Assembly (NCBI GenBank): GCA_036273715.1
Contig: DASUHB010000031.1
Location: forward strand, 1 to 64,000
DNA: 64,000 bases
Reading direction: 5' to 3'
Source: Gemmatimonadaceae bacterium
Lineage (GTDB): Bacteria > Gemmatimonadota > Gemmatimonadetes > Gemmatimonadales > Gemmatimonadaceae
Part shown: positions 8,219 to 55,448 of the stretch, piece after piece
Layout: every line of letters starts with the position of its first letter
How positions within the stretch are numbered: the first letter of the stretch is position 1
Made by a program: the position numbers and the translations under genes
Notes under the pieces: generated by a model
What the model was told of the DNA's origin: nothing
Databases searched by the model: none
The model's input: only the letters and a program-made list of their open reading frames with translations

Positions 8219-9307
8219 TCAGCCGACTTCGAGGAGCTCGCGCGAAAATGTCGTGAGAATTCTTGCGCTGTCACGGCCGAGTACCACGTCATCTTCCACG
8301 CGAACTCCGCCCCACCCAGCGCGATACACTCCCGGCTCGATCGTGACGACGGCGCGCTCGGGGAGCACCGCCTCCGTCGTCCGCGCCAACCGCGGCGCTT
8401 CATGCACTTCGATTCCAATTCCGTGTCCGAGGCTGTGACCGAACGCCTCGCCCAAACCGCGCTCCTCAATGTAGCGTCGAGCCAACGCATCGGCATCTTT
8501 GCCGGTCATGCCGGCGCGGACGAGATCGGACGCGCGTTCGTTGGCCGTGCGCACGATGTCGTGCACATCGCGTTGTTCCGGCGTCGCGCGGCCAACGATG
8601 ACCGTCCGCGTGATGTCGGAGCAATAGCCGTCCACTATGGCACCGAAATCAATGAGAAGGAAGTCGCCCGCGCGAACTTGCCGGCTGCCGGCTCGGGCGT
8701 GCGGCAGCGCCGATCGTTCGCCCGACGCGACGATCGTCTCGAACGGGAAGCCGGTGCTGCCCGCATCGCGCAGCGCCAGCTCGAGGGCGCCGGCAATTTC
8801 GAGCTCCGTCTGTCCTGCACGCACTCCGGCCAACGTTCGCTCGAGCGCGCGCTCCGCGACGCGTGCGGCCGACGTGATGCTCTCGATCTCGCCCGCGTCT
8901 TTCTGCTCGCGCAGCGTCTCGACCAGATCCGTCGTTGCGCGCCACTGCCAGCGCGCACCGGCATTCAACAATCGCTCGAAATCGCGGTGCACCAGATACG
9001 CCGACTCGAATCCCACGACCTCGAGACCCGTCATGTCGGCCATCTGCCGCCAGACACCGGTCCACAAGCTCTGCGCTTCGATGGCGACGCGCGCCGGGTC
9101 GCCCACTTCTTCCTTTACTTGAGTGGCGTAGCGAAAGTCGGTGACGAGCAGCAGGTCGCGCTCCGACACGACGACGATCGCGCTCGAGCCGGAGAATCCG
9201 GTGAGGTACCGGATGTTAGGCAGGCTCGTGATCAGCAGGCCGTCGAGGTGCGCTGCGCGCAGCGCGGCGGCGAGCGCCGCCACGCGCTCGGACCGGCGGT
9301 CACTCAC
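8219..9307 (-). CDS. pepP: Xaa-Pro aminopeptidase family metallopeptidase (M24B)
   Basis: A cytoplasmic pita-bread peptidase that removes N-terminal residues before proline. 362 residues. An N-terminal creatinase-like domain (about 1-130, with LLITSLPNIRYLTGFSG) precedes the catalytic domain. Metal ligands are visible in LIDFGAIVDGYCSDITRT (two Asp), GHSLGHGIGIEVHE (His), VVTIEPGVY (Glu) and GVRVEDDVVL (Glu). The GTG start overlaps the aroQ stop by eight bases. It sits between aroQ and accB, as its homologue does in many bacteria. Whether it is aminopeptidase P or a YpdF/prolidase-type enzyme cannot be settled from sequence alone. Confidence 0.93.
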   Translation of the reverse strand: MSDRRSERVAALAAALRAAHLDGLLITSLPNIRYLTGFSGSSAIVVVSERDLLLVTDFRYATQVKEEVGDPARVAIEAQSLWTGVWRQMADMTGLEVVGFESAYLVHRDFERLLNAGARWQWRATTDLVETLREQKDAGEIESITSAARVAERALERTLAGVRAGQTELEIAGALELALRDAGSTGFPFETIVASGERSALPHARAGSRQVRAGDFLLIDFGAIVDGYCSDITRTVIVGRATPEQRDVHDIVRTANERASDLVRAGMTGKDADALARRYIEERGLGEAFGHSLGHGIGIEVHEAPRLARTTEAVLPERAVVTIEPGVYRAGWGGVRVEDDVVLGRDSARILTTFSRELLEVG

Positions 9308-9737
9308 GCTCGAGGGAGGCGACGATCCCGCGGAGCGCGAGCTCGTAGCCGCGCGCGCCGAATCCGCACACCAACGCGAGGGCGCTCGGGGCGAGCATCG
9401 ACTGCCGGCGCTCCGGTTCGCGCGCGAAGATGTTGCTCAGGTGCACTTCGACGAACGGCACCTGCACGGCGGCGAACGCATCGCGGATGGCGAGGCTGCT
9501 GTGGCTGTACGCGCCGGCATTGATGAGCGCGCCATCGACGCGGCCGCGCAGCGATTGAATGACATCCACCAACTCGCCTTCTCCGTTCCGTTGGGCGAAT
9601 TCCACTTCTACGTGCAGGTCGCGCGCGATGTGGCGCAGGTGCTGTTCGATGTCGTCCAGCGATTGGCGTCCGTACAACTCCGGCTCTCGAACGCCGAGCA
9701 GATTGAGATTTGGTCCGTTGAGGACGGCGATGCGCAC
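9300..9737 (-). CDS. aroQ: Type II 3-dehydroquinate dehydratase
   Basis: Dehydrates 3-dehydroquinate in the shikimate pathway. 145 residues from GTG at 9735-9737, the normal size. Visible family motifs are VLNGPNLNLLG at the N terminus, REPELYGR (catalytic Tyr and Arg), INAGAYSHSS and EVHLSNIFARE (substrate and catalytic His regions). GTG is preferred over the ATG at 9759-9761 because it shares a base with the upstream TAG (TAGTG), matching the coupling seen elsewhere here, and because the protein then begins at the conserved strand. The ATG start, eight codons longer, remains possible. Confidence 0.93.
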   Translation of the reverse strand: MRIAVLNGPNLNLLGVREPELYGRQSLDDIEQHLRHIARDLHVEVEFAQRNGEGELVDVIQSLRGRVDGALINAGAYSHSSLAIRDAFAAVQVPFVEVHLSNIFAREPERRQSMLAPSALALVCGFGARGYELALRGIVASLERE

Positions 9738-11503
9738 TACTTCTTCAGGCCCTCGAGCCATTGATGGAAGAGCTCGAGGTCGGCGTCGTCGCCGCGGCGT
9801 GCTGCGGGCGGGGTGGACCCGGGGGCGGACGCGCGCTCGGCGGCGCCCTCCGGCTCCGCGTCGCGCGGGGCAAAGAATTCGTCGAAGGTTTGCGGGGTGC
9901 TCTCGTGCGCACCGCCGCCGAAGACGTCGTCCAGCGACAGGGCGTCGGCCGCGGCCCGCGCCGCGCGGCCGCCTCCGTTAGGCATCCCGGCCTCGGCGCC
10001 GAACGCGCCGGCGAGGGTGGCCGCCGCCTGCTCGTCGGCCGCCGACGCGCTCCGGTCCTGGAACAGCTCGGTGAACGACAGCACGCGGTTAGGCGTGAAC
10101 GCGGGCGCCGGCTCCGCCCCGGCCGGCTCCGGGGGCGCCTCGGCCGCCTCCGCCGCGACGTCGCGTTCGGTCGCCGGCGGCGCCGCCGCCGTCTCGGGCT
10201 CTGCAGGCGCGACGTCGGCGATGCTCGCTTCGTCCGCCTCCGGCGCCGTCCAGTCGGCCGATGCCAGCTGCTCGATGGGCGGCTCCTCGCCAGCGACCTC
10301 TGCTCCGGAAGACACCGGCGCAGCCGCTTCGTTAGGCGACGCGCCGTCGGCGGCGTCGGCGACGACGGCGGCGGCGACCTCCTCCGCGGGCGCAGACGCC
10401 GCGGCCGGCTCGGCCGGCTTGCTTTCGTCAGGCGATGGGACCGCGGGCTGAGGCGCGGCGGCCTCCGCGTCTAACGGCGGCAGTTCCTCCGCCAGAGCGG
10501 ACGACGCCGCCGGCGCCGGCACCGCCGCGAGGTCGGTCTCCGTGCGCACGCCCGGCGGCCGGCGGTTCGCGAAGCGGCCGAAGAACGCGCGCACCGTCCG
10601 CTCCACCGGCGCCGCCGGCGCCGGCTGCTCCAATCGCGCGATGCGATTCAGCAGCGACATGTCTCCCGGCCGCTGCGCCAGCAACAATCGATAGATGTCG
10701 AGCGCCTGCTCGCGATGCCCTTGCTGCAAGTACAACTCGGCCATCGTCTCAGTGATGAACGCCGCGGGCAACGGTTCATCGTGCGACGACGACTCGCCGT
10801 CGGCGTGCGCCGCGGCACCCGCCGCAGGCGCCTCGAGCTCCGACGCATGCTGCGCCGGCGCTGCGGCATCGGCCGGCGCGTCGAGCATTGGCGGCTCGAG
10901 CGGCGGCAGCGCCTCGGCTTCCCCGAACGACGACAACACGTCGTAGTCGAAGTCGAGATCCTTCTTGGCCGGCACCTCCGGGGGCGTCGCCGGAGCTGAT
11001 TCGTTGGCGGGCACCGGCGGCTGCGCGGATGCGGTGCTCGCCTCCGGATTGATGTCGCCCCAACCGATGGGCTCACCGGCGGGCGATGCCGGCGTGCTGC
11101 CGGCGGGCGCTTCGAGCTCCCGCAGCAGCGCTTCGACCTCTTCATTCTGCGGATCGACCTCGAGCAGGCGCTTGTACCAGCCCAGCGCACCACTGGCGTC
11201 GCCTTTGGCGCGCGCGATGTCGCCTAACTGACGGAGGCCGATCAGGTTTTCGGGATCGAGCCCGAGCGCCGTCTCGAAGGTGGCCCGCGCTTCATCCAGT
11301 TGGCCGGTCTCGTACAACGCCTGGCCCAGGACGATATAACCGCTGATGTACGTCGGCTGCAGCGGCACGTGCGCGCGACAGATCTCGATCGCGGTGTCCA
11401 GTTCACCCCGCTTCCGATATTCGTTCGCGAGACGCGCGAACACGCGCCGCGGATTCTCGGCGAATTGCTTGAGGAGGTCGTCGATCAGCGCGGAACTGGC
11501 CAT
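9737..11503 (-). CDS. TPR-repeat protein with long Ala/Pro/acidic linker
   Basis: 588 residues of unknown specific function. TPR-like helices fill the N terminus (about 15-135, with repeated ALYETGQLDEARATFETAL and ARAKGDASGALGWYKRLL patterns). A long region rich in Ala, Pro, Glu and Ser follows, broken by one more TPR (ETMAELYLQQGHREQALDIY, about 245-265). The C terminus holds short acidic/aromatic segments (FDEFFAPRD, LFHQWLEGLKK). There is no signal peptide, so it is probably cytoplasmic. It heads the aroQ-pepP-accB series and has a strong promoter just upstream. A second protein of the same style is at 15159-17753. Likely a scaffold; the partner is unknown. Confidence 0.8.
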   Translation of the reverse strand: MASSALIDDLLKQFAENPRRVFARLANEYRKRGELDTAIEICRAHVPLQPTYISGYIVLGQALYETGQLDEARATFETALGLDPENLIGLRQLGDIARAKGDASGALGWYKRLLEVDPQNEEVEALLRELEAPAGSTPASPAGEPIGWGDINPEASTASAQPPVPANESAPATPPEVPAKKDLDFDYDVLSSFGEAEALPPLEPPMLDAPADAAAPAQHASELEAPAAGAAAHADGESSSHDEPLPAAFITETMAELYLQQGHREQALDIYRLLLAQRPGDMSLLNRIARLEQPAPAAPVERTVRAFFGRFANRRPPGVRTETDLAAVPAPAASSALAEELPPLDAEAAAPQPAVPSPDESKPAEPAAASAPAEEVAAAVVADAADGASPNEAAAPVSSGAEVAGEEPPIEQLASADWTAPEADEASIADVAPAEPETAAAPPATERDVAAEAAEAPPEPAGAEPAPAFTPNRVLSFTELFQDRSASAADEQAAATLAGAFGAEAGMPNGGGRAARAAADALSLDDVFGGGAHESTPQTFDEFFAPRDAEPEGAAERASAPGSTPPAARRGDDADLELFHQWLEGLKK

Positions 11504-51191: not shown

Positions 51192-52664
51192 CTATCGCAC
51201 GCGGGCGTCGAAGCTTCCGGTTAGCACGCGCCCTGCGCGCCGCACCTGCACCCAGATCCGATAGTGACCGGCTTTCGGGAACGCGTACGGGAAGCTCACG
51301 GTATCGGGCAGCGTTGCGCTTGTCATTGGCATTGGCAGAGGTGCGTCCCGGGTGCTGTCCCCGCCGCGACTGAAAATCGATTGCGCCGCCATCGCAATCG
51401 TGCCCATGGGATGCAGGTGGACGAACACGCTGCCATCATCGCGCGCGATCATTGCGTGGGCGGACATGCCCATGTAGGGCTGCAGGACCGCGGGTCGACT
51501 GTCTGGCGCCGTGACGGTGAAGTGCAGCGGGGCGATCACGTTCGCGACCAGCGAGGTATCGCCACGGTCCCAGCTCATGATCGATCCATCGGCCAGCGTG
51601 GCGCGTCTGGTATCCGACGCCGCCGTCAACGCACCGCTCACGATCCAGGAATCGTCGGAGTCGGTTGGGGAGAATGCGGGCGAGCCTTGCCCGCCGATGA
51701 CGAGGGTGTCGACGAGCGTCTCGGCGTAGCCGCTCCGGTGCACGATGTCGGCGTAGGTATGGTATGTCCCGGCAGGCAATGGCGGCAGCGCGACGCGAAA
51801 ATCGTTGGAGTCGCTCGTCACCGGATGCAGGTGCGCAAATGCGTCCATGCCCGGCGCACGAATCAGAAAGAAGTGGACGAGCTTTCCGTGATCGCGAACG
51901 AGCGGTGTCTCTTCGTGCTGCCTCCATCTGCTGTCCGTAATCACGAATTGAAGGACGCGTCCGGAGTCGGCGAGCGATACGCGGCTCGCGAGCGGCTTGT
52001 AAATGATGCGCCGATACGCTCGGGCCGAGTGGTTCCACCATGCGTTGCCGCCCAGGAGCGCGAGCGCGAAGATCGCGGCCGCGGAGCACACCGCAAGGCG
52101 CGCGCGTCGCCGGCGGGGCGCGTCGACCGGGACGCCGGGGTCGAGCGTCGCTTCTCGAGCGCCGGCGCCGATGATGGAGAGCAAACCGAAGACGAGAAAG
52201 GCGCCGAGCGCGAGGAGCAGCGCGCCTAACGCTGGCGACATCGGCAGCTCCCGCGTGGCCGCCGAGACGACCGGCACGTCGACGGTCCCCGTGCCCCGCG
52301 TGCCGCTGACAACGACCCGAATCGAGTAGGAGCCGGATGTCATGAGCCAGAGCCGGGTGGCGAAGGCCCCGGCTTCGCCCAGCACCGGCGCTGCGAGGTC
52401 TGGCGGCGGTGCGCCATCGGCGCCGGTCTCCCACAACACCGGCTGCACCGTCACCTGCGCGGCGGGTTCGTTGGACACCTGGACTACTACATCGAGCTGA
52501 CCGGGCACCACACCGGGCGGGCGGCTGACCACGCCGACATCGTAGGGCCCCGCCGCGCCGCGAAAGTAGACGTCCGGACTGCCGACGTGCCCGACCCCGG
52601 CGATGACCAGCACGGCGAGCGCCGCCAGCGCCGCCAGTCCGTTAGGCAGCGGCGGGCGGCTCAC
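51192..52664 (-). CDS. Membrane protein with FixH-like and duplicated HLHP domains, function unknown
   Basis: 490 residues. The N-terminal anchor (about 8-27) is followed by a periplasmic beta domain (about 40-135) that resembles FixH/YtkA-like domains. Two more helices (about 145-168 and 190-207) precede a large outer part with two copies of a similar motif: DHGKLVHFF...FAHLHP (HLHP at 278-281) and YMGMSAHAM...FVHLHPMG (HLHP at 416-419). Many His and Met residues around these suggest metal, perhaps copper, binding. It is translationally coupled to the ten-helix protein upstream (ATGA). I do not recognise the family, and the metal role is inference. Confidence 0.7.
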   Translation of the reverse strand: MSRPPLPNGLAALAALAVLVIAGVGHVGSPDVYFRGAAGPYDVGVVSRPPGVVPGQLDVVVQVSNEPAAQVTVQPVLWETGADGAPPPDLAAPVLGEAGAFATRLWLMTSGSYSIRVVVSGTRGTGTVDVPVVSAATRELPMSPALGALLLALGAFLVFGLLSIIGAGAREATLDPGVPVDAPRRRRARLAVCSAAAIFALALLGGNAWWNHSARAYRRIIYKPLASRVSLADSGRVLQFVITDSRWRQHEETPLVRDHGKLVHFFLIRAPGMDAFAHLHPVTSDSNDFRVALPPLPAGTYHTYADIVHRSGYAETLVDTLVIGGQGSPAFSPTDSDDSWIVSGALTAASDTRRATLADGSIMSWDRGDTSLVANVIAPLHFTVTAPDSRPAVLQPYMGMSAHAMIARDDGSVFVHLHPMGTIAMAAQSIFSRGGDSTRDAPLPMPMTSATLPDTVSFPYAFPKAGHYRIWVQVRRAGRVLTGSFDARVR

Positions 52665-53815
52665 CGCTTCACCCGGCGCAGCCAGTCGCCGCAGGCCAGA
52701 CCGAGCCGCGACGACAGTACCGCGAGACCGGCGGCGAGCGCCAATCCGCCGGCCAGCTTGGCCGGCCGCACCGGCGGGAAGATGTGCCGGTAGGCGTACG
52801 ACGTCTTGGGCAGCGCGTAATAATAGTTGGTGGAGGCGAAGACCCAGTTCTCCGACGCCGGCGAGTTATAGAACGAGCCGAATGACCACTGCGCGGCAAA
52901 GAACACGGCGAAGAACACGGTGCCGAGCAGCGCCGCCAGACGCCAGCCGCGCAGCGTGTCCGGCACGCGTTGGAACATCAGATCGAGCACGAACGCCGGC
53001 GCGAGCAGGAGGAGCGGAAAATCCGGCGGCACCATGTGCGTCACGGTCTGATAGATCGGGCCTAACCGGGGCGTGGCCGGGAACAGCGGCAGGAGCCAGA
53101 CCATCGCGAGCATGACGACGGTGTAGACGGCGGCAATGGACGTGGTCGGCCATCGCAGCCGCGACGCGCGGGCGAGTGTGACCAGGTAGAACGGGAACAC
53201 GAGACACGCCACCACGTAGAACTGCGGCGTGTGCATGAGGACGCGCCGATGGTACTCGGTGGTCATGATCGTCGCGTTCAGGAACAACAGCCCCGCGGCG
53301 GCCGCGTACAGCACGCGATACCGCTGCGCCGCCGCGGCGCCGGCGCGGTTCTGCAGCGCGAGCGTCATGAGCAGTGCGCCCAACTGGATGGCGGCGATGC
53401 CCAACGCGAGAACCGTGTGCGGCGGACTCAGGATCTGGACGTCGAGCCCGTAGGCGTTGTGCCACCAGTTGTCGAACGGCGCCGAGGTGAGCATCGCGAA
53501 CGTGCCCCAGATGCACACCCACGCGCCTAACGGAGCATGGAACACGCGCCAGAAGCGCACCGTGTCGCCGCGGGACGCGGCGCCGCCAAACGTGGTCGCG
53601 AGCACCAGCCAGCCGCACGACAGCCCGGCGATGAGGCCGCCGGCGTAGATCGCCATGTGCGCCGGCGTCCAGAACGTGTCGCGGCCAATCGTGCTGTGCC
53701 ACGAGATGTCCCACATCACGCCGACGATCACGCACAGCGATGCCAGCAGGGCCGCCGACAGATACCGCGGCACGCCGATCGTCTGCTCCCCGCTCGCTCG
53801 GCGATGCGGTTTCAT
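52661..53815 (-). CDS. Polytopic membrane protein, about ten helices, function unknown
   Basis: 384 residues with about ten membrane helices (roughly 17-35, 53-77, 93-111, 133-153, 168-184, 199-217, 226-246, 262-280, 292-312, 352-376). Conserved-looking polar residues lie at helix ends: MWDISWH (34-40), PAH (51-53), DNWWHNAYGLD (115-125), SPPH (130-133), EYHRR (187-191). This pattern of paired Trp, Asp and His is unusual and could bind a metal or heme. I do not recognise a family. It is translationally coupled to the HLHP protein, so they probably act together. Confidence 0.7.
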   Translation of the reverse strand: MKPHRRASGEQTIGVPRYLSAALLASLCVIVGVMWDISWHSTIGRDTFWTPAHMAIYAGGLIAGLSCGWLVLATTFGGAASRGDTVRFWRVFHAPLGAWVCIWGTFAMLTSAPFDNWWHNAYGLDVQILSPPHTVLALGIAAIQLGALLMTLALQNRAGAAAAQRYRVLYAAAAGLLFLNATIMTTEYHRRVLMHTPQFYVVACLVFPFYLVTLARASRLRWPTTSIAAVYTVVMLAMVWLLPLFPATPRLGPIYQTVTHMVPPDFPLLLLAPAFVLDLMFQRVPDTLRGWRLAALLGTVFFAVFFAAQWSFGSFYNSPASENWVFASTNYYYALPKTSYAYRHIFPPVRPAKLAGGLALAAGLAVLSSRLGLACGDWLRRVKR

Positions 53816-53822
53816 CGCCGAC

Positions 53823-55448
53823 TCAGGGATAGCGGAAGCGGTACGTCGCCATGAGTTGCACGCGCCCGTACGTCCCGGCCGGCGTCGCGACGTTGTTCAC
53901 GTTGGTCACGCGCGCGCCCTGCACCACCAGTGTGAGCGGCACGATGGGGTCGAGCCACTGCACGCTCGCGTCGGCCATCCACGCGCTCTGCACGTCGGGC
54001 GTGTCGCCGCTCGCAAACGGAAACGGCGCGCCGGCATGGCCGAAGCGGGCCGGCGGCGGACGCTGGCTGATGCGCTGGTCGCCGCGGCGCCACTTGGCGA
54101 TGCCGGCGGACACATGAAACTTCCCTGTGGGCCACACGTCCGCGAACGCCCGCGCCATGTCGGCATCCGGGCCTAACTCGGACCCCACCGGCTGATCGTA
54201 TTGCTGCCACGTCGCAGTGTAGAACGACTCGAGGTACGTGAACGCGCTCACGCGCCGGTATTGCAGCCCCAGATTCGCCGGCACGGGCAGCGACAACGCG
54301 TAGGTCCCGCGCACGTTCCAGGCGAACAAGTCGGGAAAGTTCTTCCGATCCTGCGCATCGATCTGAATGTCGTCGATGAGCAGATCGCCCTGCAGCGAGA
54401 ACCGGTCGAGATTGGCCCGCACCGATCCGAACGCCGTCAGGTTCACGTCGCCGGCCTGGCTGACGTCGCCGGATTTGTCGTTCTGCGTGACCTGAAATAC
54501 CATCAACGGATTCACGAAGTTGAGCGCGATCCCGCCGCCCTGGCGCGGAATGAGCGCCGTCTCGCCGAGCGTCAGCTCGACCTTGTGCGACGGCCGCCAC
54601 GTGAGCGCGTGCGCCACCATCATGCGATGGTACCGCTGCGTCCCGACGCTGTCCGGCAGACTGTCGGTGGCCGGCGACAGCACCACGTCGTTGAGCTCGG
54701 CCACGAGGGCCTTGAACTCGAATTTCGACCACTGCGCCGTGAGCGTGATCTTGTCCAACGCAGGGCCGTTCGCCGAGAGCACGAGCGACTCCGTGCCATC
54801 GCCGATCCACGCTTCGCGGCCGCGCCCAACGGAGAGCACGATCGGGCCCAACTTGCCCGATGCATAGGCTTCGCTGAAATCGATGACGCCGGACGTGTGC
54901 CGGAATTGATTGGCGCGCACCGTCGGATCGTTGCGGCTGTCGGTCTCGCCGTACGCCTCGCTCACCAGGACCACGTTCGGGCCGCCATCGAACGAGAGGC
55001 GCAGCCGCGCCGTCCCGACGGCCGGCGGCGTGCCCTGTCCCGTTGGGCGAACGTCGTCCCACAGCGGGTACATCTCGCCGTTGTCCAGGCCCGTCGCCTG
55101 GAGCGATGCGAGCGCGCCGAAGCGCACGCGGTTCGACGACGCCGCGGCGGCCGAGTCGGACGCGACGCTGTCGGCGAGGAACCGCGAGGCGAGCGCGTCG
55201 AGCACCCGGCCTGCACACCGTGGTTCGGCCTTGGCCGTGCGCAGGGCGCCGCGCACATCCTTCACCATGAACGGCCGGAACGCGGATACGCGCGCGGCGC
55301 CGCAGCCCAACTCCACCAGGCCGTCGAGCTGGGCGTACGCGGGATCATCGAGGGGCAGCGTGACTAGCGGATGCTGCGCGGCGGCCACACGCGCGCTTCC
55401 GGCGGCGAGGAGCAGCGCGCCGGCGGCAACGACGAACGCGGAGCGAAT
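53823..55448 (-). CDS. Wzi-like capsule assembly outer-membrane protein
   Basis: 541 residues from the proposed ATT start. The N terminus carries a good signal peptide (RSAFVVAAGALLLAAGSARV ending AAAQ), then a short helical segment of the Wzi type (PLDDPAYAQLDGLVELG...FRPFMVKDVRGALR, about 26-75) and a barrel with NPLMVFQVTQN, LLIDDIQIDAQDRKNFPD, YRRVSAFTYLES and QPVGSELGPDADMAR, all like Wzi. Wzi helps anchor capsule polysaccharide on the outer membrane. No ATG or GTG in frame precedes the signal peptide: the first GTG (55388) would remove it. ATT at 55446-55448 lies seven bases after AAAGGAG, and CTG or ACG just upstream are the other choices. Confidence 0.75.
   Translation of the reverse strand: MRSAFVVAAGALLLAAGSARVAAAQHPLVTLPLDDPAYAQLDGLVELGCGAARVSAFRPFMVKDVRGALRTAKAEPRCAGRVLDALASRFLADSVASDSAAAASSNRVRFGALASLQATGLDNGEMYPLWDDVRPTGQGTPPAVGTARLRLSFDGGPNVVLVSEAYGETDSRNDPTVRANQFRHTSGVIDFSEAYASGKLGPIVLSVGRGREAWIGDGTESLVLSANGPALDKITLTAQWSKFEFKALVAELNDVVLSPATDSLPDSVGTQRYHRMMVAHALTWRPSHKVELTLGETALIPRQGGGIALNFVNPLMVFQVTQNDKSGDVSQAGDVNLTAFGSVRANLDRFSLQGDLLIDDIQIDAQDRKNFPDLFAWNVRGTYALSLPVPANLGLQYRRVSAFTYLESFYTATWQQYDQPVGSELGPDADMARAFADVWPTGKFHVSAGIAKWRRGDQRISQRPPPARFGHAGAPFPFASGDTPDVQSAWMADASVQWLDPIVPLTLVVQGARVTNVNNVATPAGTYGRVQLMATYRFRYP

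What the first reader, a model, noticed from the sequence alone, without database searches (positions are those of the whole stretch)
51192..53815. A translationally coupled pair of unknown membrane proteins with metal-binding features
The 384-residue polytopic protein places W, D and H residues at helix ends (MWDISWH, PAH, DNWWHNAYGLD, SPPH, EYHRR). Its partner has a FixH-like domain and two similar outer units, each with an upstream His and an HLHP motif (278-281 and 416-419), plus several Met. Together they look like a dedicated metal or heme-related membrane system, for example copper delivery or sensing, yet I do not know a named family for either. They sit among surface polysaccharide genes and may be unrelated to them.
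Basis: partly seen in the sequence, partly recalled or inferred. Interest (0 to 1): 0.6.

Follow-up and report, generated by a model that had tools for sequence, protein, structure and literature searches.

The report
Hidden two-gene copper monooxygenase relative
Two coupled genes of no named family in a soil bacterium encode what looks like a simplified, fused relative of the copper enzymes that microbes use to oxidise methane and ammonia; the pair is common in Gemmatimonadota and Acidobacteriota, which are not generally thought to carry such enzymes.

Summary
The two genes are real and overlap by 4 bp. Protein A (384 aa) is a remote, fused relative of two subunits of copper membrane monooxygenases (pMMO/AMO). 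Its residues 17-157 carry the PmoC CuC ligands with exact spacing (D36, H40, H53 = D156, H160, H173). They also carry the CuD spacing (D115, H119, H133 = N227, H231, H245), with Asp replacing Asn. All six residues are invariant in 94 homologues. AmoC models top both Pfam and NCBIfam for family members, below cut-off. The predicted structure matches PmoA best: the first 11 entries listed from 994 PDB chains aligned are PmoA/AmoA. Protein B has a PmoB-like layout (beta domain, two TM helices, beta domains) and an invariant His at the predicted mature N-terminus (90/90), as in PmoB, plus two HxH sites; its sequence does not match PmoB. Gene order [C+A]-B mirrors xmoCAB. The gene for A occurs in 65/249 Gemmatimonadota and 33/200 Terriglobia genomes sampled; B is adjacent in nearly every locus examined. 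Most likely it is a two-gene, copper-dependent, membrane-bound oxygenase of unknown substrate. The fused PmoC-PmoA relationship is well supported (about 0.9). Catalysis is inferred (about 0.55); copper handling on the same scaffold is the main rival.

The parts
52661..53815 (-). Gene A, 384-aa polytopic protein: fused PmoC-core/PmoA-like subunit
   Evidence: Open frame; 94-member family with invariant ligands; AlphaFold2 pLDDT 93
53345..53767 (-). PmoC-like segment of A (residues 17-157), four helices corresponding to the last four helices of PmoC
   Evidence: AmoC is the top Pfam and NCBIfam hit for family members; hhalign path A 1-167 to PmoC 89-257
53657..53710 (-). CuC-type motif D36-x3-H40-x12-H53 (in WDISWHSTIGRDTFWTPAH)
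   Evidence: Invariant in 94/94; spacing equals PmoC D156/H160/H173 (PMC12576850); 19 columns at 53% identity to Methylocystis AmoC
53417..53473 (-). CuD-type motif D115-x3-H119-x13-H133 (DNWWHNAYGLDVQILSPPH)
   Evidence: Invariant in 94/94; spacing equals PmoC N227/H231/H245 (PMC12576850); same alignment path
52664..53344 (-). PmoA-like segment of A (residues 158-384)
   Evidence: VIA-align: best 11 entries all PmoA/AmoA, Z 12.1-13.1; hhalign 266-311 to PmoA 124-166
52661..52664 (-). GTGA overlap of the A stop and the B start
   Evidence: Sequence
51192..52664 (-). Gene B, 490-aa membrane-anchored protein with PmoB-like layout
   Evidence: Open frame; adjacent to A in nearly all homologous loci; AlphaFold2 pLDDT 92
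52590..52664 (-). Signal-peptide-like segment of B (residues 1-25)
   Evidence: Small residues at -1 and -3 in 85/90 homologues; helix 9-22 in the model
52587..52589 (-). His26, predicted first residue of mature B
   Evidence: His in 90/90 homologues
52245..52589 (-). N-terminal beta domain of B (26-140), CrdA/CopC/YtkA-like, with W106 and M108
   Evidence: VIA matches CrdA Z 10.7 and CopC Z 9.1; profile hit to CrdA E 0.0065; W106/M108 in 89/90
52011..52235 (-). Transmembrane hairpin of B (helices 144-171 and 182-218)
   Evidence: Model secondary structure
51822..51833 (-). HLHP of the second beta domain of B (278-281), with H259 and H264
   Evidence: H259/H264/H278/H280 in 88/90
51408..51419 (-). 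HLHP of the third beta domain of B (416-419), with M400 and H403
   Evidence: H416/H418 94% conserved

Best explanation
A and B form a reduced, two-gene relative of copper membrane monooxygenases (CuMMO: pMMO/AMO). A is a fusion of the metal-bearing helices of a PmoC-like subunit (residues 17-157) with a PmoA-like subunit (158-384). B is a PmoB-like, membrane-anchored periplasmic copper protein whose mature N-terminus is His26. Shown here: the gene pair, its conservation, the exact match of both ligand spacings, the profile similarity to PmoC, the structural similarity of the predicted model to PmoA, and the layout of B. Inferred: copper bound by D36/H40/H53 (CuC-like), and possibly by D115/H119/H133 (CuD-like), near the periplasmic face activates O2 and hydroxylates a small apolar substrate. 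B docks on A, and its His26, HxH and Met sites hold or supply copper. Substrate and electron donor are unknown. Confidence that A is a fused PmoC/PmoA homologue is about 0.9; that the complex is a working oxygenase, about 0.55.
For: (1) D36/H40/H53 and D115/H119/H133 are invariant in 94/94 A homologues down to about 40% identity. They reproduce both PmoC ligand spacings: CuC D156/H160/H173 and CuD N227/H231/H245 (PMC12576850). (2) Without prior choice, AmoC is the leading family in two libraries: Pfam PF04896 (10/78 members, best E 9e-5) and NCBIfam NF041641 and TIGR03078 (8 and 6 members, best 3.6e-5). (3) The reverse search agrees: all PF04896 matches at E<=0.001 in 399 Terriglobia genomes were A homologues, and so were 7 of 9 at E<=0.01 in 150 Gemmatimonadota genomes, each with B beside it. 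(4) hhalign against genuine PmoC scores 41.3, against a null maximum of 27.3 in 200 shuffles; the same path aligns the CuD motif. (5) An HMM of the A family ranks 14/14 genuine PmoC first, then 11/11 PmoA, then PmoB. (6) The high-confidence model of A (pLDDT 93) matches PmoA/AmoA in the top 11 entries, Z 12.1-13.1; the next entry is 9.2. (7) Gene order [C+A]-B equals xmoCAB order. B has PmoB's layout of beta domain, two TM helices, beta domain(s), and an N-terminal His (PMC12576850). (8) A and B evolve together (distance correlation 0.81, null maximum 0.06) and are adjacent across Gemmatimonadota, Acidobacteriota and others. (9) Weak: PQQ alcohol dehydrogenases are commoner in genomes with the pair (13/18 vs 5/18, P 0.018; 6/10 vs 5/18 within the family, P 0.12).
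Against: No member reaches a curated AmoC cut-off; best E-values are about 1e-5. Foldseek alone found nothing significant for A, and PmoC itself was not among VIA's listed matches. Z 13 is within the range the tool reports for unrelated helical bundles. B shows no sequence similarity to PmoB, and PmoB was not among its listed fold matches. The CuD Asn is Asp in every member, and the PmoB CuB pair H137/H139 has no obvious equivalent in B's first domain. There is no linkage to methanol dehydrogenase, hydroxylamine oxidoreductase or other downstream genes. Four loci have A without B.
Confidence: 0.6

Rival explanations
1. A copper acquisition, delivery or storage complex that reuses a CuMMO-derived scaffold: A passes or holds Cu in the membrane and B, with its CrdA/CopC/YtkA-like first domain and HxH/Met sites, collects periplasmic copper. 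No oxygenase chemistry.
For: B's N-terminal domain resembles the copper-resistance proteins CrdA (profile E 0.0065; Z 10.7) and CopC (Z 9.1). B has conserved His/Met sites in three domains. No catabolic neighbours. Sporadic distribution.
Against: Strict conservation of both PmoC-type sites including the carboxylates, and retention of a PmoA-like half, which has no known role in copper transport. No linkage to copper genes seen.
Confidence: 0.25
2. A membrane metal or heme system not derived from CuMMO: the PmoC-like motif is convergence on a helix-hairpin D-x3-H metal site, and the PmoA match is a generic helical bundle.
For: Below-cut-off E-values; Foldseek found no significant fold match; helical bundles can reach Z about 13 by chance according to the tool.
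Against: Two independent ligand sets with exact PmoC spacing in one alignment path; PmoC, then PmoA, then PmoB ranking; 11 of 11 best fold matches are PmoA/AmoA; CAB-like order; PmoB-like layout of B.
Confidence: 0.08
3. A part of the surface-polysaccharide cluster in which it lies.
For: It sits directly between a Wzi-like gene and a UDP-glucose dehydrogenase on the same strand.
Against: No such neighbours are conserved in homologous loci across genera and phyla; no carbohydrate-related signature.
Confidence: 0.02

Closest known systems
Particulate methane / ammonia monooxygenase (xmoCAB)
   Same: CuC ligand triad and CuD His pair with identical spacing; PmoA-like second half; order [C+A] then B; B with beta domain, TM hairpin, beta domain layout and a predicted N-terminal His.
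   Different: Two genes instead of three: C and A are fused and the first helices of PmoC are missing. CuD Asn is Asp. B is not alignable to PmoB, has an extra beta domain with its own HxH, and lacks an obvious CuB HxH in domain 1. No methanol dehydrogenase or HAO linkage.
Thermoplasmata (Ca. Angelarchaeales) CuMMO
   Same: Deeply divergent, conserved C site, N-terminally truncated AmoC/PmoC (PMC9038741).
   Different: Those have separate, recognisable C, A and B subunits and a conserved CuB site; the family here is a fusion below family cut-offs, in bacteria.
CrdA / YtkA / CopC periplasmic copper proteins
   Same: Fold of B's N-terminal domain and, for CopC, an N-terminal His (from general knowledge).
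   Different: B is a larger, membrane-anchored three-domain protein tied to A; YtkA and CopC matches are few and weak.

Membership tests
Copper membrane monooxygenase (CuMMO) | PmoC CuC site: one Asp and two His, D-x3-H-x12-H | tested here: met
   D36/H40/H53 in 94/94 homologues; ligands from PMC12576850
Copper membrane monooxygenase (CuMMO) | PmoC CuD site N-x3-H-x13-H (not universal: absent in Thermoplasmata CuMMOs, PMC9038741) | tested here: inconclusive
   Both His and the spacing are present in 94/94, but Asn is always Asp
Copper membrane monooxygenase (CuMMO) | Match to an AmoC/PmoC family model above the curated cut-off | tested here: not met
   Best 9e-5 for PF04896 and 3.6e-5 for NF041641; no search gave a score over the PF04896 cut-off for this family
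Copper membrane monooxygenase (CuMMO) | PmoA subunit | tested here: inconclusive
   Fold match Z 13.1 to PmoA for residues 158-384; weak sequence signal
Copper membrane monooxygenase (CuMMO) | PmoB with two cupredoxin-like domains, TM hairpin and CuB (N-terminal His33, H137, H139) | tested here: inconclusive
   Layout and predicted N-terminal His present; no sequence match; domain-1 HxH not found; PmoB not among the fold matches listed
Copper membrane monooxygenase (CuMMO) | Three separate genes, usually xmoCAB | tested here: not met
   Two genes with C and A fused, in the same order
Copper membrane monooxygenase (CuMMO) | Copper-dependent oxidation of methane, ammonia or a short hydrocarbon | not testable with these tools
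   Needs biochemistry
   No FixH hit at E up to 1 for B or its separate domains, nor among the 25 families most often matched by B-family members
YtkA / CopC copper proteins (N-terminal domain of B) | Match to PF13115 or PF04234 | tested here: inconclusive
   3/69 and 2/69 members, best E 6.7e-5 and 0.029; fold match to CrdA and CopC

The most novel reading that the evidence does not exclude
A previously unrecognised, widespread branch of the copper membrane monooxygenase superfamily with a minimal two-gene architecture ([PmoC core + PmoA] fusion plus a divergent PmoB analogue). It would oxidise a so far unknown substrate, such as short hydrocarbons, trace gases or ammonia, in Gemmatimonadota and Acidobacteriota, so that surveys based on pmoA/amoA and family models have missed this capacity in common soil bacteria.
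Probability: 0.5. Interest if true: 0.92.

Novelty: new variant of a known kind. Interest (0 to 1): 0.82.

Why it matters
CuMMOs control biological methane and ammonia oxidation, and only a few branches are known, all with separate A, B and C subunits. A far-diverged fused version that keeps both the CuC and CuD ligand sets would give a natural test of which residues the chemistry needs, a long-running dispute about pMMO. It would also imply an overlooked oxidative capacity in two of the commonest soil phyla, reachable in cultured strains such as Acidipila rosea.

Tried and rejected
Direct Pfam and NCBIfam scans of the window proteins: nothing useful. Single-sequence and profile searches of PDB sequences: nothing meaningful for A; only CrdA, weakly, for B. 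Plain Foldseek for A: no significant match; the PmoA relationship appeared only in the VIA-align second look. VIA and Foldseek for B mostly list Ig-like and fibronectin domains, which I treat as generic beta-sandwich matches; PmoB was absent from the lists, which proves nothing. PmoC was also absent from the VIA list for A. hhalign of B against PmoB gave no meaningful alignment. A viral-contig search with a genuine AmoC fragment found nothing. Using Binatota genomes as a source of full PmoC failed; Rhodococcus and Methylocystis plasmids and Verrucomicrobiota genomes with several pmo operons served instead. FixH, heme and polysaccharide readings were rejected. An apparent presence in Proteobacteria was not accepted: locus L096, titled Rhodanobacteraceae, lies in a genome grouped with the Acidobacteriota isolate of L075, and the two loci titled Betaproteobacteria were not verified.

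Full report
OBSERVATION. The two frames are as described: A, 53815-52661 minus, 384 aa; B, 52664-51192 minus, 490 aa. The B start and A stop overlap in GTGA. Upstream lies a Wzi-like gene (PF14052, E 4.5e-8) and downstream a UDP-glucose dehydrogenase. Neither A nor B matches Pfam or NCBIfam above cut-off, nor any PDB sequence as a single query.

A CONSERVED PAIR. A occurs in 20 of 60 nearest genomes (one only as a fragment at a contig end) and B in exactly those among the genomes tested, each time beside A. A scan of bacterial and archaeal genome contigs gave 80 loci, mostly Gemmatimonadota and Acidobacteriota, with some titled Verrucomicrobia, Eisenbacteria or Binataceae. B was detected directly downstream on the same strand in 75 of 80. 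Of the other five, one contig ends after A and four loci have A alone. With an A profile, 65 of 249 Gemmatimonadota and 33 of 200 genomes of the Acidobacteriota class sampled (Terriglobia by its content) carry A. A and B distances correlate at 0.81, null maximum 0.06. No other neighbour is conserved, so the pair is a stand-alone unit and the polysaccharide setting is incidental.

WHAT A IS. In 94 sequences the residues D36, H40, H53 and D115, H119, H133 never change, nor do most of their neighbours, e.g. WDxSWHxxxGRDxFWTPAH and APFDNWWHNAYGLDVxxxSPPH. This is the PmoC pattern. In pMMO the CuC ligands are Asp156, His160 and His173, and the CuD ligands Asn227, His231 and His245 (PMC12576850); both spacings match residue for residue. 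Family scans support this without being steered. Of 24,736 Pfam models AmoC (PF04896) is matched by most members (10 of 78, best E 9e-5). Of 18,950 NCBIfam models the first two are both AmoC (NF041641, TIGR03078; best E 3.6e-5). In the reverse direction, PF04896 searched against Gemmatimonadota and Terriglobia genomes found mainly this family.

COMPARISON WITH GENUINE SUBUNITS. I fetched PmoC, PmoA and PmoB from Methylocystis (C only) and Rhodococcus plasmids and from Verrucomicrobiota genomes with several pmo operons. hhalign of the A family with PmoC scored 41.3 on the CuC motif (19 columns, 53% identity); 200 column or block shuffles reached at most 27.3. The extended path runs from A 1-167 to PmoC 89-257 and puts the CuD motif in register. 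The last four PmoC helices therefore correspond to A helices 17-42, 51-76, 96-122 and 131-157, with all six ligands at helix ends on one face; charge distribution suggests the periplasmic face. Against PmoA the best local match was A 266-311 to PmoA 124-166 (score 23.5, reached by 1 of 200 shuffles). An HMM of the A family ranked all 14 PmoC first, then all 11 PmoA, then PmoB.

STRUCTURE OF A. AlphaFold2 from the family alignment gave mean pLDDT 93. Plain Foldseek found nothing significant. VIA-align of the top 1000 candidates put pMMO PmoA or AMO AmoA chains in all first 11 places (Z 13.1-12.1, about 200 of 240 residues; best match A 158-384 to PmoA 17-243), with the next entry at 9.2. That these chains are the PmoA/AmoA subunit is read from chain length and the usual chain naming of these entries. 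The tool warns that helical bundles can reach Z about 13 by chance, so this is not proof on its own. It is persuasive because the same protein independently carries the PmoC signature. I could not read coordinates, so convergence of the ligands in space is not shown.

WHAT B IS. The model (pLDDT 92) has a signal helix, a beta domain (26-140), two TM helices (144-171, 182-218) and two further beta domains. PmoB likewise has two beta-barrels joined by two TM helices (PMC12576850). All 90 homologues have His at position 26, and 85 of 90 have small residues at -1 and -3, so the mature protein probably starts with His. PmoB's CuB uses its N-terminal His33 with H137 and H139. B lacks a clear HxH in domain 1 (W106 and M108 are conserved instead), but domains 2 and 3 each carry HxHP with further His or Met. 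B does not align with PmoB by sequence. Its first domain resembles CrdA and CopC, both copper proteins. I call B PmoB-like in layout, not a PmoB.

MECHANISM. Best reading: an A-B complex in which CuC/CuD-type copper in A, close to the periplasmic face, activates oxygen for a small apolar substrate, with B holding or supplying copper. The order [C+A]-B repeats xmoCAB. Stand-alone A copies recall singleton xmoC genes (PMC6215863). PQQ alcohol dehydrogenases above cut-off are commoner in genomes with the pair (13/18 against 5/18, P 0.018), but within one family the difference is not significant (6/10 against 5/18, P 0.12), and genome size and kinship confound it. Catalysis, substrate and electron donor are inferred or unknown.

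MEMBERSHIP AND NOVELTY. I do not file the pair as pMMO/AMO: it fails the three-gene feature and the family cut-offs, and PmoB identity is unproven. It is a homologue of the C and A subunits that probably works like a CuMMO, hence a new variant of a known kind. Searches of open-licence papers found no description of such a family; closed journals and preprints were not searchable.

Noticed in passing
L063:187-2778: In this Gemmatimonadetes MAG, A and B are fused in one open frame; the last helix of A runs into the signal helix of B. Could be a natural fusion or an assembly error.
   Followed up: partly
L044, L051, L066 near 8938-10128; L078:79-1320: Copies of A without B. The assemblies of these four loci also hold a second A locus (L102, L090, L095, L081), where B is adjacent.
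   Followed up: partly
L114:1-1676: A Binatota genome (G172) that also holds this family has a genuine truncated AmoC/PmoC at a contig end (PF04896 E 1.5e-15), beside a 393-aa protein that looks like a secreted domain fused to an SCO1-like copper chaperone.
   Followed up: no
window 53823-55388, minus strand: Wzi-like capsule assembly protein ending a few bases before gene A, so A may be read from the same transcript here even though the association is not conserved.
   Followed up: no
L096: A contig titled Rhodanobacteraceae lies in a genome that the search tool groups in one class with an Acidobacteriaceae isolate, so its public label is probably wrong.
   Followed up: partly
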